The position numbers and the translations under genes were made by a program. Positions 735-27,739 of a stretch of DNA of 34,192 bases are shown here, piece by piece (the stretch's first letter is position 1; each line of letters opens with the position of its first letter). The stretch covers positions 1-34,192 of the forward strand of contig NZ_KB290709.1 of the NCBI RefSeq assembly GCF_000318095.2, written 5' to 3'. The stretch comes from Alloprevotella sp. oral taxon 473 str. F0040 (GTDB lineage Bacteria > Bacteroidota > Bacteroidia > Bacteroidales > Bacteroidaceae). The notes below the pieces were generated by a model that saw only the letters and a list, made by a program, of their open reading frames with translations, did no database searches and had not been told where the DNA came from.

Positions 735-1112
735 CCCCTATATGTATATGGGAGGATATGAGGCGAAAGAGAGAAAAAATCGAGGAAAAGTGCAGATTTT
801 TCTTGAAGGTGTGTCTATTTTGTAAGGTGGATATGTCAGAATTGCGAGAAAGTGGGCGAATAGTGCAGGTGAAACATAAGCTCTTATCGGGAGCGAATGT
901 TGACGGAGAGTGGGAGGATGGAGGGAACAAAATAGTGGGAGACTGGGAAACAGCGGAGGGGGAGTAATAATCGAAAATACGATAGTGGAAGAATGTGGGG
1001 GATAGGGCAGAATAGAGTAGTGGTGAAGGTGCAGTATGCTTTGGGGAAGTATGCCACCAAAGAGGGGGGAAAATGTGTATAGACATTTTTACATTTCAGA
1101 AAAATCCCCTCG

Positions 1113-1393
1113 TGTGCGTGTGCGCACATCAGGGAGTTGTGACTTTTTGCTTTCACAACCTTCACAGAAATAGAGTAGGGATGCAATATGATGAGTTGTA
1201 AATCAGTGAGTTATGCTGTGTTAAATGCTGCGTTTTAGAATGTTGGTGTGGATTTTGGGCTTTTGATTGTGTTAAAAATTGTCTGAAAATAGGTGGTAAA
1301 TACTTGAAGTATAGAGAAATGCAGAGAAATCTGTGAAGGTTGTGAAAGCAAAAACATAGAAATTGCTGTAATGCGCGCGTACGCGTACGCGCG
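1113..1393. repeat. inverted 22-bp arms with outer C/G palindromes, copy 1
   Basis: The left arm is 1144-1165 (core TGCTTTCACAACCTTCAC) and the right arm is its exact reverse complement at 1333-1354, with 167 bp between. Each arm contains two TTCAC boxes separated by AACC. Outside the left arm lies an alternating purine/pyrimidine stretch (TGTGCGTGTGCGCACA, 1113-1128). Outside the right arm lies a perfect 20-bp palindrome, CGCGCGTACGCGTACGCGCG (1374-1393). Such alternating C/G DNA is prone to cruciform or Z-form structure. Confidence 0.9.
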
Positions 1394-1652
1394 AGAAGAG
1401 CGTTTTTAGAATCGTTCACGTATCGCTCTTTTTCTTCTGGTCGTGATGTTTTCTTCCTTCCTTCGGAGAAGAGAGAAAGTTCCGATTTACTTTAAAAAAC
1501 AAGGGAGGCGTAGCACGAAAAGTCCGACGTTTTCGGAAAACTCTCCGAGAAAATTTAGAAAAACTCCGACGTTTTCTGAGCTTTCTCCCAGAGAAGATTT
1601 CGAGGAAGGGATGTTTAGCAAAAAGCATGAGCATTATCTCGTGAGAAACCCT

Positions 1653-1660
1653 TAATTTTG
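1653..1660 (+). promoter_or_regulatory. candidate -7 box TAATTTTG upstream of umuDC
   Basis: TAATTTTG fits the Bacteroidota -7 consensus TAnnTTTG and lies about 115 bp before the umuD start, at the right edge of repeat copy 1. No clear -33 TTTG is visible at the proper spacing, so the call is moderate. Confidence 0.4.
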
Positions 1661-1774
1661 CAGTTAGCGAGGCTGCGAAAATGGGGCTTGTGGCTCTGTT
1701 TGGACCAGAAAATCCTGTGCATCAGCCCTCGTTGTTCTGCATATTTCCCAACTCCTATTCAGATATTCTTCATC

Positions 1775-7712: not shown

Positions 7713-7872
7713 TGTTCGATGGATACGTTCTTCAATCGTTCATTGTAAGACTAAGCGTTCATTCAGAGCTTGCATAGTTCGGTGATTACGTTCTTCAATC
7801 GTTGCATTGTTCAGAACTTGCATCATTCAGAACTTGCATTGTTCAGAACTTGCATCATTCAGTAGCAACTTA
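7713..7872. repeat. short tandem and direct repeats after the GH20 gene
   Basis: A 16-bp unit alternating ATTGTTCAGAACTTGC and ATCATTCAGAACTTGC is repeated about four times at 7806-7869. Before it, a segment centred on ACGTTCTTCAATCGTT occurs twice (7725-7740 and 7788-7803) in similar flanks. The array lies between the GH20 stop codon and its terminator, so it would be in the 3' untranslated region. Confidence 0.8.
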
Positions 7873-9022: not shown

Positions 9023-9177
9023 AGAGGAAATCAATCTCTTCTTTAGGAGGGAGAAAAATCTCTCCTTAGAGAAAAATCCTCTCTTTTAAGGAGAAAAGTC
9101 TCTCTCTTTGAGGACATAAACCTCCCTGTTTGAGGAGAACCTCCTTGTTATCAGAGGAGAGAGTCAAGCCTCTGTCA
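9023..9177. repeat. array of about seven 18-28-bp imperfect palindromes in the ddh leader
   Basis: Successive units begin at about 9023, 9045, 9068, 9088, 9110, 9132 and 9150. Most have the form GAGGA-A-rich-TCTCCTTT, for example GGAGAAAAATCTCTCC and GAGGAGAACCTCC. Each can fold on itself, and neighbours can pair with each other. The array lies between a candidate minus-strand promoter and ddh. Confidence 0.8.
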
Positions 9178-12818: not shown

Positions 12819-13560
12819 CCCCCCTATTATATATGGGGATGCAAATAGCCGAAAGTGTCACTGTAAATGTTAAAACTAGACGTTCAGCACTGAATTTTGA
12901 GATAGTTTAAGACTCGAGGACGGAGAGCCCTTGCTGCCGTCTCAAAGAGGGTGCGATTTCTTCGCGTGGGCGCGTACGCTCGCGCGCATCCCTGGAATTT
13001 CGTGTTTTTTGCTTTCACAACCTTCACGCAGGGGGTGTTGAATGTTCTATTTTAGGGAGAGAATTTTCTGCTTTTACAAGACAGCTTGGAGCAGTCGAAA
13101 GGTAGGAAAATAGGACGATGGAACCGATGTGTGTTAAAATATGTCCGAAAGATGCGCACTACGAATTGAAACATAATAGGTTACAGAGTTTTCTGTGAAG
13201 GTTGTGAAAGTAAAAATACGAAAATCGCTGTAATGCGCGTGTACATGCGCGCGTGAGGAAGTCTTTTTAAGATTCGTTCACCCTCCGTTTTCTTCTTCCT
13301 CGCTTTGGGCTCTTTGGGGCAAGGAGATAACCTCGTTTCTCGATGACTCTTCGATGAGTAGGCAAACTCTCCGACATTTTCCATTTTTTCTTGGAGATTT
13401 CCAGACAGATGTCGGAGACTTTTCTGCGCATCTCCGAGATTTCCCCCTCTTGTTTCCTACATTTTGTGTGAGATAATCCAATGTCCTTGTAGCACTTGTG
13501 GAGAGTTATCGCGAGACAAAGGCTTAATGAAGTCTTACGAAGGCTTAGCAAAGGGCTATA
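12819..13560 (+). repeat. composite intergenic repeat element, copy 2
   Basis: This fills most of the 1.1-kb gap between the ATPase gene and the TonB-C gene. It begins with the box CCCCCCTATTATATATGGGG (about 12819-12837) and continues with the 22-bp inverted arms and C/G palindromes (12964-13257) and a CTCCGA-rich tract (13364-13446). Its last part (TTAGCAAAGGGCTATAATTTG, split over 13546-13567) recalls the end of copy 1. No credible protein is encoded. From here to 13805 nothing else was recognised. Confidence 0.72.
12964..13257. repeat. inverted 22-bp arms with outer C/G palindromes, copy 2
   Basis: The left arm is 13006-13027 and the right arm 13195-13216, reverse complements except for one base (13211). 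The separation is 167 bp, exactly as in copy 1. GTGTTAAAA sits at about the same offset inside both. The outer C/G-rich stretches are GCGCGTACGCTCGCGCGC (about 12970-12987) and GCGCGTGTACATGCGCGCG (about 13235-13253). Sequence just outside the right arm (TCGCTGTAATGCGCG) matches copy 1. Confidence 0.88.
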
Positions 13561-16539: not shown

Positions 16540-16619
16540 CGCCATTGTTTTTGGCTGGCTGCGGCTCTGTCGAAGACGAAAGACATCGAACCCTCCTTAA
16601 CCTCCTCATATCCCGCACT

Positions 16620-18029
16620 ATGTCACAAAAATGGCTCTCTACTTTGCAAATCTTGAAGCCTACCATTTCCGCAAACATCTACACGATGTTTGTGGATCAC
16701 ATGAAGTGTAGCCATGAGGATGAGCAAATATTGGTGCTGGAGGTGCCTACTGCGGCTTTTCGTGACACGATGTTTAAGGCGATGGGGATGCAGTTGCGTG
16801 ATGCCATGGTGAAGGTGTGGGGAACCATGCCCAGCGTGAAGTGGGTGTTCACCGATATGCTCGGGAATAATGATAGCTCGGGACAGGTGTCTGTGCTTTC
16901 GTCTAAAGGCTCGACTACAGCTCCAGCGGTGCACCAGCCCATAGCGCAGCTGACACCTGTGGCGCAACCCTCCAACTTCGATACGCACCTGATCGAAGCC
17001 TATACTTTCGATAGCTATTGCGAGGGTATCAGCAATCGTGCTGCGGTAAATATGGCGCGTGCCATGGCGGAAAATCCAGATGCGCAGACCTTCAATCCCT
17101 TCTTCTTGTATGGGCCTTCGGGAGTGGGAAAAACACACTTGGTGAATGCGGTGGGAAATGCTGTGCGAGAGAAATTTCCAGAACGACGTGTGCTCTTTGT
17201 TTCGGCGCGCAACTTTCAGGTGCAGTATGCGGATGCTGCGATGGCCGACCGCAACAATAAGAATTCCACGGCTATCAATAGCTTTATCCACTTCTATCAA
17301 AGCATTGATATGCTCATCATCGATGATTTTCAAGAAATCAGCGGTGAAAAAACACTCAAGGCCTTTTTCCACATCTTTAATCACTTGCACGCCAATGGGC
17401 GCAAGATGCTTTTCACCAGCGACCGTTCGCCAGCTGAATTGAAAGGATTGGAAGATCGCATTCTCTCGCGTCTGCGCTGGGGAATCACCATTCCGCTAGA
17501 ACAACCTGACCGCACTTTGCGTCGCGACATTATCTTGTGTAAATTGCGTCGTGATGGGGTGGAAGGATTTCCCATGGATGTGGTGGACTATTTGGCGGAT
17601 GTCGTGTCGGAAAATGCAAGAGAACTTTATGGTATGGTCAATTCTATCATTGCCGAGTCTATGAAAACGATAAGCTCTCACATTACGGTGGAGTTGGCGC
17701 AACGTGTGGTGCCACGAATTGTGAACCAAGCGCGCAAAGAACTGAGCTTCCGCGAGATTTCAGAATTGGTGTGTGAACACTATGGCGTGAAATCTAAAGA
17801 GGTATGCTCCAAATCGCGCAAGGGCAACATTGCGGCAGTACGTCATATCGTGTGCTACCTCGGACAGAAGTTCACGGACATCTCGTTGTCGCAAATCGGA
17901 CGTGAACTAGGAGGGCGCGACCACTCCACCATTTTGCATAGTTGTAAAAAGATAGAACGATTGTTTGCTACGGATGCAGCATTCCGCGAGGAGATAGAGA
18001 ATATTGAAATTACTTTGCGCAAGAAGTAG
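16620..18029 (+). CDS. dnaA: chromosomal replication initiator DnaA
   Basis: A 469-residue DnaA of normal length. Domain I begins M-S-Q-K-W-L-S-T-L-Q. Domain III carries Walker A G165-P-S-G-V-G-K171-T and Walker B L-I-I-D235-D236-F. Domain IV ends with the DnaA signature G-R-E-L-G-G-R-D-H-S-T-I, the part that reads DnaA boxes. The ATG at 16620 is preferred over one 25 codons upstream because it follows the candidate promoter at 16532 and gives the usual N-terminus. No cluster of DnaA boxes (TTATCCACA) was seen around the gene, so the origin need not be here; oriC is often away from dnaA in this phylum. It is followed by a strong terminator. Confidence 0.97.
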   Translation: MSQKWLSTLQILKPTISANIYTMFVDHMKCSHEDEQILVLEVPTAAFRDTMFKAMGMQLRDAMVKVWGTMPSVKWVFTDMLGNNDSSGQVSVLSSKGSTTAPAVHQPIAQLTPVAQPSNFDTHLIEAYTFDSYCEGISNRAAVNMARAMAENPDAQTFNPFFLYGPSGVGKTHLVNAVGNAVREKFPERRVLFVSARNFQVQYADAAMADRNNKNSTAINSFIHFYQSIDMLIIDDFQEISGEKTLKAFFHIFNHLHANGRKMLFTSDRSPAELKGLEDRILSRLRWGITIPLEQPDRTLRRDIILCKLRRDGVEGFPMDVVDYLADVVSENARELYGMVNSIIAESMKTISSHITVELAQRVVPRIVNQARKELSFREISELVCEHYGVKSKEVCSKSRKGNIAAVRHIVCYLGQKFTDISLSQIGRELGGRDHSTILHSCKKIERLFATDAAFREEIENIEITLRKK

Positions 18030-26761: not shown

Positions 26762-26968
26762 CTGGTGCAACCATCTTTCTTTGCTGCTTTCTTTCCCCTT
26801 CTGCCTTCTCTCCCTTCTCTCTCCCTTCATTCTCTTATCTTGCATTCGCTCTTCTTTCGCTCGCTTTTTTGTCTCCTTGCTTCTTCCTTTCTTCTTTCAC
26901 CCCATTTTCTATCCTTTTCCCTTGTCGCATATCCCTTTATTCATCCGTTCTTTTTGCTTTCCCTCTGC
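26762..26968 (+). other. polypyrimidine tract before repeat copy 3
   Basis: Over about 200 bp the + strand is strongly biased to C and T, with many CTTTCC, TTCTTC and CTCTCCC runs and few purines. Open frames across it are low-complexity Ser/Leu/Phe-rich artefacts. Such DNA can form triplex (H-DNA) structures. Confidence 0.6.
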
Positions 26969-27242
26969 CCCCTATAAGTATATGGGAGGATATGAGGCGA
27001 AAGTGAGAAAAATCGACAGAAAAGTGACATTTTTTCTTTGAGATCTTTCTATTTGAAAAGTCTATCTTGCAAAACTGTGTGATAACGTGCTGCAGAACAC
27101 ACCGACCTTCGCGAACTCTATCTCTTTTAGCGATTTCTTGTTCTGACCTAGTCTGTCTGTTTCCATCCATTTTCCCTAATTCGTGATAGGGTAGTGTAGG
27201 AGAGGACGAGTTCACTCGTCGCACTGTGGAAAACTCTCTCCT

Positions 27243-27676
27243 CGCGCGTACGTGCGCGCGCCCTACAGCGATTTTGCACTTTTTGCTTTCACAACCTTCA
27301 CACTCGCTTTGTCCGTTGTCTTCCTTTTCCCTTATTTTTCAAGGTATTATCCTCCTATAATCTCCCATATTTTTCCGAAAAACTCCGACATTTTTGGAGA
27401 AACCTCCGACGTTTTCTCAAATATCTCCGAGTGTTGTGGATAACTCTCCGATTTTCCCATTTTCTCCCCAAAATCTACTCTTTGCCCCCAGTTGTCCATA
27501 TACGGCTTATTTCATCCCATTTTCCTTGATTTTTTGCTCTTCTGCCACGTTTTTCTAAATGAATGCAAATAAATCGCTTGTATCTCGTTGTGCCCTAGTG
27601 TATTACAACGAAAAGTGTGAAGGTTGTGAAAGCAAAAACTACTATTTTGCAGGGTGCGCGCGTGCACGCACGCGCG
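27243..27676. repeat. inverted 22-bp arms with outer C/G palindromes, copy 3
   Basis: The arms 27280-27301 and 27617-27638 are perfect reverse complements of each other and identical to the copy 1 arms; they are 315 bp apart. The outer near-palindromes are CGCGCGTACGTGCGCGCG (27243-27260) and TGCGCGCGTGCACGCACGCG (27655-27674). Confidence 0.9.
27435..27443 (-). other. single perfect DnaA-box sequence
   Basis: TGTGGATAA is the reverse complement of the consensus DnaA box TTATCCACA. It lies in the CTCCGA tract of repeat copy 3. A one-mismatch copy (CTATCCACA) is at about 27805-27813. Two sites are not enough to call an origin. Confidence 0.3.
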
Positions 27677-27739
27677 AGAAACCTTGATTTTACATTTGTT
27701 AAGTTGGACGGGAAAGTTAGTAGGAACGACTTTCGTTAT

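What the first reader, a model, noticed from the sequence alone, without database searches (positions are those of the whole stretch)
735..1661. A composite intergenic element present three times, built from four separable modules
Copies at about 735-1661, 12819-13560 and 26968-27700 share a CCCCTATA..TATGGG box, a pair of inverted 22-bp arms, C/G palindromes outside the arms, and a CTCCGA-rich tract. Each occupies most of a roughly 1-kb non-coding gap upstream of + strand genes or elements (umuDC, the TonB-C/kinase operon, the IS30 remnant). The module order is rearranged in copy 3. It does not look like a classical IS or MITE: no transposase, no obvious target duplication. It could be a non-autonomous mobile element, a structured chromosomal site, or a long regulatory leader. 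I know of no named element with this architecture.
Basis: seen in the sequence. Interest (0 to 1): 0.8.

Follow-up and report, generated by a model that had tools for sequence, protein, structure and literature searches.

The report
Spaced composite sites across the chromosome
The three repeats belong to a family of about 45 non-coding DNA sites per genome that share an ordered build, keep their distance from each other and differ in a short recognition word between related species; they look like protein-binding landmarks on the chromosome, but what they do is not known.

Summary
Confirmed and much extended. The paired arms occur at 46 sites in this genome and 43 in a sister species. They are the core of an ordered composite: box module, CG palindrome, arm, interior, 65-bp module, arm, CG palindrome, with a CTCCGA tract outside (two subtypes) or between the arms (third subtype, window copy 3); box and tract are recognised in part of the copies only. 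Orthologous copies keep the 16-bp arms (96%) while flanks drift to 61%. Paired sites are never closer than 9.7 and 11.5 kb in the two species, and 35 of 43 sister copies lie in the origin half. Other species of the genus carry the palindrome-arm core with other arm words. It does not match BrickBuilt, Rfam, or the phage and plasmid collections, and does not behave as an invertible switch. Best reading: host-maintained nucleoprotein sites for chromosome organisation, like Noc/SlmA sites in layout. Main rival: a non-autonomous mobile element with target immunity. No partner protein was identified.

The parts
735..845 (+). Copy 1 box module (CCCCTATATGTATATGGGAGG plus about 90 bp of partly conserved sequence)
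1110..1129 (.). Copy 1 left alternating CG palindrome, outer edge of the core repeat
1144..1165 (+). Copy 1 left arm TTTTTG + CTTTCACAACCTTCAC (two direct heptamers, period 9)
1271..1288 (-). Copy 1 module of subtype Acgg (TTTCGGACATATTTTAAC type)
1333..1354 (-). Copy 1 right arm
1372..1394 (.). Copy 1 right alternating CG palindrome
1516..1600 (+). Copy 1 CTCCGA tract (about 21-bp units), outside the arms on the module side
12820..12930 (+). Copy 2 box module; its downstream part is the least conserved of the 20 aligned
12963..12988 (.). Copy 2 left CG palindrome
13006..13027 (+). Copy 2 left arm
13133..13150 (-). Copy 2 module of subtype Acgg
13195..13216 (-). Copy 2 right arm (one mismatch, outside the 16-bp core)
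13234..13255 (.). Copy 2 right CG palindrome
13365..13445 (+). Copy 2 CTCCGA tract, outside the arms on the module side
26968..27090 (+). Copy 3 box module
27241..27261 (.). Copy 3 left CG palindrome
27280..27301 (+). Copy 3 left arm
27380..27460 (+). Copy 3 CTCCGA tract, between the arms (subtype Aaac)
27556..27573 (-). Copy 3 module of subtype Aaac (the assignment allowed up to 5 mismatches)
27617..27638 (-). Copy 3 right arm
27657..27678 (.). Copy 3 right CG palindrome

Best explanation
Each copy is a chromosomal landmark, not a gene. A sequence-specific protein (not identified) binds the tandem heptamers of both inverted arms and joins them into one nucleoprotein complex; the CG palindromes bracket the complex as hairpin- or Z-DNA-prone borders, and the box module and 21-bp tract are accessory sites on opposite sides. 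About 45 such complexes, kept about 10 kb or more apart and mostly in the origin half, mark or organise the nucleoid, as Noc and SlmA sites do in other bacteria. Shown: the anatomy, the polarity where box and tract are recognised, conservation of arms, spacing and distribution. Inferred: that a protein binds, that it joins the arms, and that the output is chromosome organisation, segregation or division control. The family probably spread by copying at some time, since positions differ between distant species.
For: Arms are conserved at shared positions: over 24 orthologous pairs chosen, 738 of 768 arm positions are identical (96.1%), against 69.2% of the interior and 60.6% outside. Arm-to-arm length is within 2 bp in 17 of these 24 pairs; the other 7, all longer copies, differ by 20-102 bp. 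In the 14 short pairs taken further it differs by 0-2 bp, while 13 of 20 measurable flank distances (150-410 bp long; 8 of 28 not measurable) changed by more than 2 bp. Of 42 sister copies, 25 had both flanks mapped in order and 21 of these are shared. Polarity: of 24 box matches around 65 one-module copies, 20 lie on the side opposite the module and point inward; the other 4 are loose. CG palindromes keep self-complementarity beyond their purine-pyrimidine alternation: 102 of 165 ends pair 7 of 8 or better, against 48 on average and at most 62 in shuffles. Smallest gaps are 9.7 kb (own) and 11.5 kb (sister); 0 of 5,000 (own) and 0 of 3,000 (sister) uniform placements reach them. 35 of 43 sister copies lie within a quarter chromosome of the GC-skew origin; 0 of 3,000 simulations do (skew). 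In 6 further species a recognition hexamer is 4- to 24-fold denser in the element windows than in flanks (words chosen by eye from the same loci).
Against: No binding protein was found and no binding data exist. Sister gap sizes fit random placement with a 10-kb exclusion (CV 0.635 against 0.627 +/- 0.095), which target immunity of a mobile element would also give. A weak model hit in G057 (E 0.003), left out of the spacing test, would lie 2.6 kb from the next element. The composite is far larger than a Noc or SlmA site. Box is recognised in 20 of 65 copies and tract in 46 of 65 at its usual place. Some copies are present in one species only, and in two more distant species only 10 of 47 mapped flank sides (of 120) lie by a sister copy, where 9% is expected by chance. 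The origin rests on GC skew from partial sequence; dnaA lies about 0.6 Mb from it. The helical-phase signal in arm spacing is weak outside the 198-bp peak: 14 of 18 off-peak lengths under 240 bp sit on an 11-bp lattice, and the two species are not independent.
Confidence: 0.42

Rival explanations
1. A non-autonomous mobile element (MITE-like) whose missing transposase recognises the arms. Mu- or Tn7-like target immunity keeps copies about 10 kb apart, and each species has its own transposase specificity, hence its own arm word.
For: Inverted arms with outer ends shared by many copies; copies of the third subtype align with each other at 68-79% over their length; species-specific sites; gap distribution equal to random insertion with exclusion; Mu cis-immunity is strongest near 5 kb and fades over 5-25 kb (PMC7350765 passages); different positions in distant species.
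Against: Old copies at shared positions keep the arms, and the short class its arm spacing, while everything around them drifts. No autonomous copy was seen, but my parse paired arms only up to 700 bp apart; 2 of 46 own sites had no partner in range. No target duplication could be read at the empty sites. The window copy 1 difference looks like a loss in the sister, whose site holds a truncated box joined to the tract at CGAAA. The Mu-type transposase test (PF09299) gave 0 of 10 genomes, but its control was silent, so it says nothing.
Confidence: 0.33
2. A recombination site: a recombinase acts at the arms, and the elements are the hot spots at which the chromosome inverts.
For: In the five own-genome stretches compared, 8 of 10 synteny junctions with the sister have an element at the junction in one genome or the other; one inversion has both ends at elements and another has one. 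Several neighbouring copies are similar in inverted orientation.
Against: Where the alignment to the sister reaches the interior (about two dozen loci by eye) it runs in the direction of the flanks, and none was seen reversed, so the arms do not act as an invertible switch. Junctions also favour long intergenic gaps, and no null was run for that. Dispersed repeats recombine without a dedicated enzyme.
Confidence: 0.12
3. A gene for a structured non-coding RNA, running from the box to the tract as terminator, with the arms pairing as a long stem.
For: Polarity from box to tract; tract units form hairpins followed by T runs in places (by eye; no terminator scan was run).
Against: The arms are nearly invariant rather than covarying; RNAalifold finds no pairs on the 65-sequence module alignment (it holds one end of each element, so arm pairing was not tested); no Rfam match in the window; in subtype Aaac the would-be terminator lies before the second arm.
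Confidence: 0.09
4. Passive relics of an ordinary repeat without function.
For: Position between genes of at least 100 aa in the 37 sister copies examined.
Against: Conserved arms and short-class arm spacing against a drifting background, and the exclusion spacing.
Confidence: 0.04

Closest known systems
Noc and SlmA binding sites (nucleoid occlusion; PMC4726725, passages read)
   Same: About 70 Noc and 24-52 SlmA sites per chromosome, under-represented in the terminus region; here 43-46 copies, in the sister concentrated in the origin half.
   Different: Those are short palindromic sites (14 bp for Noc); this is a composite of roughly 0.7-1 kb with two inverted arms, palindromes, box and tract. 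No homologue of either protein was sought.
BOX elements of pneumococcus (PMC3049150, passages read)
   Same: Composite, modular intergenic repeats with a variable number of tandem middle units; many copies.
   Different: BOX is described there as having terminal repeats and target duplications; no exclusion spacing appears in the passages seen. I did not compare the sequences.
BrickBuilt MITE of Porphyromonas gingivalis (PMC4596501, abstract and passages read)
   Same: Bacteroidetes intergenic repeat with about 20-bp tandem units and inverted ends.
   Different: Its 23-nt unit (AGAYCATARTATCCTCTCRTRTG) and 12-bp ends (GAGACCTTTGCA type) do not match by eye; its tandem repeat is the core, here it is an accessory.
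REP/BIME palindromes (search-listing abstracts only, PMC2817692 and PMC3733652)
   Same: Dispersed extragenic palindromes, hypothesised to matter for supercoiling.
   Different: REPs are 20-40 bp and most carry GTAG or CGTC tags; membership was not tested here.
Mu/Tn7-type transposons with target immunity (PMC7350765, passages read)
   Same: Mutual exclusion on the 5-25 kb scale; ends with several binding sites (recalled).
   Different: No transposase or transposition seen here; arms look selected at old sites.

Membership tests
MITE (non-autonomous transposable element) | Terminal inverted repeats | tested here: met
   Forward arm before reverse arm at all 44 two-arm own loci; many within-genome alignments end 46-49 bp outside the arms
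MITE (non-autonomous transposable element) | Target site duplication | tested here: inconclusive
   Empty sites found but the flanks have diverged too far to read one
MITE (non-autonomous transposable element) | Parent element or transposase with the same ends | tested here: inconclusive
   Arms were paired only up to 700 bp apart; the transposase family search had a silent control
MITE (non-autonomous transposable element) | Copies similar to each other over their length | tested here: inconclusive
   The third subtype aligns at 68-79% between copies; the other two mostly share only ends and module
BrickBuilt | 23-nt repeat unit and GAGACCTTTGCA-type ends | tested here: not met
   Units and ends printed in PMC4596501 are unlike those read here, compared by eye
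Invertible promoter (phase switch) | Segment between inverted repeats found in both orientations | tested here: not met
   No interior seen reversed relative to its flanks between the two species; one genome per species
Noc/SlmA-type nucleoid occlusion site | Tens of sites, depleted near the terminus | tested here: met
   43 sites in the sister, 8 in the terminus half as placed by GC skew
Noc/SlmA-type nucleoid occlusion site | Bound by Noc (ParB family) or SlmA (TetR family) | not tested
   No binding data and no homologue search made
Rfam RNA family | Covariance model match above gathering score | tested here: not met
   0 matches in the window
REP/BIME | 20-40 bp palindrome with GTAG/CGTC tag and associated tyrosine transposase | not tested
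   Compared by listing abstracts only

The most novel reading that the evidence does not exclude
A new kind of bacterial chromosome-organising site: large composite nucleoprotein anchors that repel each other within about 10 kb, populate mainly the origin half, act as breakpoints of chromosome inversion, and use a short recognition word (CTTTCAC, CCTTCAC, CTTCCAC, TGTCAC, CTACAC, CTGCAC) that the copies read in a species share and that differs between species, presumably in step with a fast-evolving DNA-binding protein.
Probability: 0.35. Interest if true: 0.92.

Novelty: new variant of a known kind. Interest (0 to 1): 0.8.

Why it matters
Dispersed repeats in bacteria are usually judged by sequence similarity. 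Here only short words, palindromy, spacing and order are kept while the rest drifts, so such families are easily missed. If the sites are bound by a host protein, they give an entry to chromosome organisation in Bacteroidetes, where I recall little being known. If they are mobile, they record target immunity in natural genomes. In both cases a recognition word that differs between related species at some 50 sites per genome makes co-evolution of a binding protein and its sites directly testable.

Tried and rejected
BrickBuilt was my first idea from recall (23-bp units in a Porphyromonas MITE); the paper's unit and ends do not match. An invertible promoter was rejected on orthologue orientation. 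An RNA fold of the module alignment gave no pairs. Phage and plasmid collections: no match for the copy 2 core. Viral contigs: one exact 17-mer hit in a stretch that looks like coding sequence, taken as chance. Genome contigs: the arm+AGA 20-mer in 24 stretches, 23 of the sister genome and 1 in a Peptococcaceae MAG, not followed. Paper search for 15 letters of the arm: 0 papers. Searches, of which I saw the listings, showed no title or abstract that describes such an element.

My first figure of a 1.145-Mb empty arc was wrong: the exact 17-mer missed a sister copy at 2549579. One search gives the corrected arcs (650 and 495 kb). That copy is only; the element set holds 42 of 43 sister copies and 44 of 46 own sites (two own sites have one readable arm). 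The first pairing held 81 and became 86.

Rows dropped or set aside: in the G057 list typed into I left out a weak hit at C4:131707 (E 0.003), 2.6 kb from the next element; for G048 I left out 9 single-hit contigs (53 of 62 hits kept). G005 was not in the spacing test; a weak G005 hit (E 0.016) lies about 3 kb from another. Five unpaired arm-like matches in the sister (1 or 2 mismatches of 16) have no CG palindrome beside them and were taken as chance. One search dropped 7 of 172 ends (N or short). One search used 7 of 9 G005 loci, 5 of 8 G008 and 6 of 7 G032, leaving out loci without a visible element. Some single weak model hits (for example G026, G046, G049) look like coding sequence, so the 14 of 58 is an upper figure.

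The crude gene caller keeps open frames of 91-210 aa across 21 of 37 sister elements; I treat these as mechanical and did not test them for coding. The CG-palindrome pattern over 150 relatives stands out in 4 species only and is a rough guide.

Full report
WHAT WAS CLAIMED AND WHAT IS THERE. The window holds three copies with the box, inverted arms, CG palindromes and CTCCGA tract at the places given. The own genome has the 21-bp arm 44 times forward and 45 times reverse at up to 3 mismatches, with 0 for the reversed control. I took 46 sites; at 44 of them both arms are there, forward arm first. In the same genus, one of the 57 other genomes held has the exact 17-bp arm, 39 forward and 39 reverse. 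That genome, G033, matches record LT608321.1, 'Prevotellaceae bacterium Marseille-P2826'. I call it the sister species. It has 43 copies. Five further single arm-like matches lack the palindrome and were taken as chance.

ANATOMY. The arm is two direct heptamers, CTTTCAC AA CCTTCAC, after a T run. Outside it come about 18 bp and an alternating CG palindrome; many alignments between copies of one genome stop near its outer edge, 46-49 bp from the arm, while some run on. The palindromes vary in letters but stay self-complementary: 102 of 165 ends pair at 7 of 8 or better, against 48 (maximum 62) when pyrimidines and purines are shuffled among their own places. Of 172 ends, 75 have a 65-bp module of three variants (38 TTTCGGACA.., 21 TATTAGGAAC.., 16 TTTATAACAT..) and 97 have none; 65 of 86 copies have the module on one side, 5 on both, 16 on neither.

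POLARITY. I oriented the 65 one-module copies by the module. Of 24 box matches, 20 lie on the opposite side and point inward, 189-455 bp before the arm; 3 opposite-strand matches and 1 wrong-side match are loose. The other 45 copies show no box by this pattern at its usual place. The box begins a conserved stretch of about 110 bp. The CTCCGA tract lies outside on the module side in 21 of 34 copies of the first variant and 10 of 15 of the second, and between the arms in 15 of 16 of the third; 4 copies of the first variant have units on the other side. Orthologues of the two species are counted apart here. Window copy 3 is of the third variant, which explains its 'rearranged' order. The tract also occurs without arms.

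CONSERVATION. In 24 orthologous pairs that I chose, the arms are 96.1% identical (738 of 768), the T run with its neighbours 87%, palindrome 77%, interior 69.2%, outside 60.6%. Arm-to-arm length agrees within 2 bp in 17 of the 24; the other 7, all longer copies, differ by 20-102 bp. In 14 short pairs the change is 0-2 bp, while 13 of 20 measurable flank distances changed by more than 2 bp. Of 86 copies 51 are under 240 bp from arm to arm, and 33 of these are 197-200 bp. Off-peak lengths sit near 11-bp steps in 14 of 18, suggestive only. Of 42 sister copies, 25 had both flanks mapped in order in the own sequence held: 21 are shared and 4 absent; 16 had one usable flank or flanks in different places, and 1 had none. 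For window copy 1 the sister site holds a truncated box joined to the tract at CGAAA, which reads as a loss in the sister.

SPACING AND PLACE. The smallest gap is 9.7 kb in the own genome and 11.5 kb in the sister; in two further species 5.9 kb (74 listed sites, one weak close hit left out) and 9.1 kb (53 of 62 hits). Uniform placement never gave such minima in 5,000 runs for the own genome and the two further species or in 3,000 for the sister. Sister gaps vary as in random placement with a 10-kb exclusion, so the rule is 'not close', not 'even'. In the sister 37 of 43 copies lie in 40.5% of the chromosome, and 35 of 43 within a quarter chromosome of the skew origin. The origin near 1.70 Mb and terminus near 0.3 Mb come from GC skew on the 1.6 Mb held; dnaA is elsewhere, at 1.08 Mb, and in this window at 16545-18029. 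With a crude gene caller, neighbouring genes of 37 sister copies show no preferred orientation.

REARRANGEMENT. In five own-genome stretches compared with the sister I count 10 junctions of collinear blocks. Five have an own-genome element within 600 bp; three more have block ends that abut sister elements 2025691 or 2054766; two have none. One inversion has both ends at elements, another one end. The two junctions without an element were read and show no arm; the third C10 junction shows a box-like sequence beside a 20-N gap. No null was run for the preference of junctions for long gaps.

OTHER SPECIES. A sequence-only model of the module side (136 positions, 65 sequences) finds matches at E 0.01 or better in 14 of 58 genomes of the genus: own, sister, G057 (133 half-elements when searched alone), G048 (62), G005 (56 at E 0.05), and few in nine others, some of which look like chance. 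In 201 genomes drawn from the family, 7 match at 0.001, two of them in other genera and weakly. The relatives keep the CG palindrome and inverted arms, mostly with the T run, but change the word: CCTTCAC in G057 and G048 (G048 also CTTTCAC and CCTTCGC), CTTCCAC in G005, TGTCAC in G008, CTACAC in G032 (CG palindrome weak or absent there), CTGCAC/CTACAC in G038. I read 30 loci each of G057 and G048 and fewer of the others; box and module were not sought in them. The hexamer of each is 5.7-8.6 per kb in the element windows against 0.3-1.6 in the flanks (words chosen by eye from the same loci). G057 and G048 have their own 20-21-bp tract, CTACCTCNGAGGTAG, beside many elements. Their positions are mostly different: 47 of 120 flank sides mapped, and 10 of these lie within 1.5 kb of a sister copy, where 9% is expected.

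READING. Old copies keep two words and, in the short class, their distance, while everything else drifts. That is what selection on a protein-binding site looks like, and it is hard to explain for dead mobile elements. The exclusion and the move of positions between distant species are what a mobile element with target immunity would leave. Both can be true: spread as an element, kept as a site. I put the host-site reading first at 0.42 and the mobile reading at 0.33. In layout the nearest functional parallel is the set of Noc and SlmA sites, tens of sites depleted near the terminus (PMC4726725, passages). Nothing here shows a protein, a transcript or a phenotype.

NOVELTY. No Rfam match in the window, no phage or plasmid match for the copy 2 core, no paper in the library with the arm letters. 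As a repeat it belongs with composite intergenic repeats such as BOX (PMC3049150, passages), hence 'new variant of a known kind'. The combination of exclusion, origin-half bias, polarity and species-specific words is one I know from no named family; that statement is recall plus the listings of searches.

Going back over the calls I corrected the box count, the arm-length counts, the similarity of the third subtype, the inversion ends and several lists of dropped rows. None of these moved the odds.

Noticed in passing
L053:1064-1255; also G033:C6:1758819-1759010, 1871775-1871966, 2009149-2009338: A second dispersed repeat of about 195 bp (77-89% alike between copies).
   Followed up: no
window 16545-18029: dnaA lies in this window, about 0.6 Mb from the GC-skew origin when mapped on the sister genome.
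   Followed up: partly
window 9033-9139: A 22-bp minisatellite (AATCTCTCTCTTTGAGGAGAAA, 5 copies) in a gap between long open frames, of about the same period as the CTCCGA tract but another sequence.
   Followed up: no
window 7724-7862: Tandem 16-bp and 64-bp repeats just after the glycoside hydrolase family 20 gene.
   Followed up: no
L035, L037, L044, L047, L048, L050, L053, L060: Runs of 20 N beside an arm, mostly with the arm present on both sides: the arm repeat seems to break the assembly.
   Followed up: no
L197:2158 onward: Beside a G005 element an open frame begins MKEKKILGLDLGTNSIGWALVKE, which looks like a Cas9 start (recall; read by eye).
   Followed up: no
G033:C6:1795053-1795635 and 1802069-1802651: Two copies of one stretch with a CTCCGA tract, identical as printed and 7 kb apart.
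   Followed up: no
G000:C10:238060-238460 (L230): A box-like sequence without arms beside a 20-N gap, at a synteny junction with the sister.
   Followed up: no
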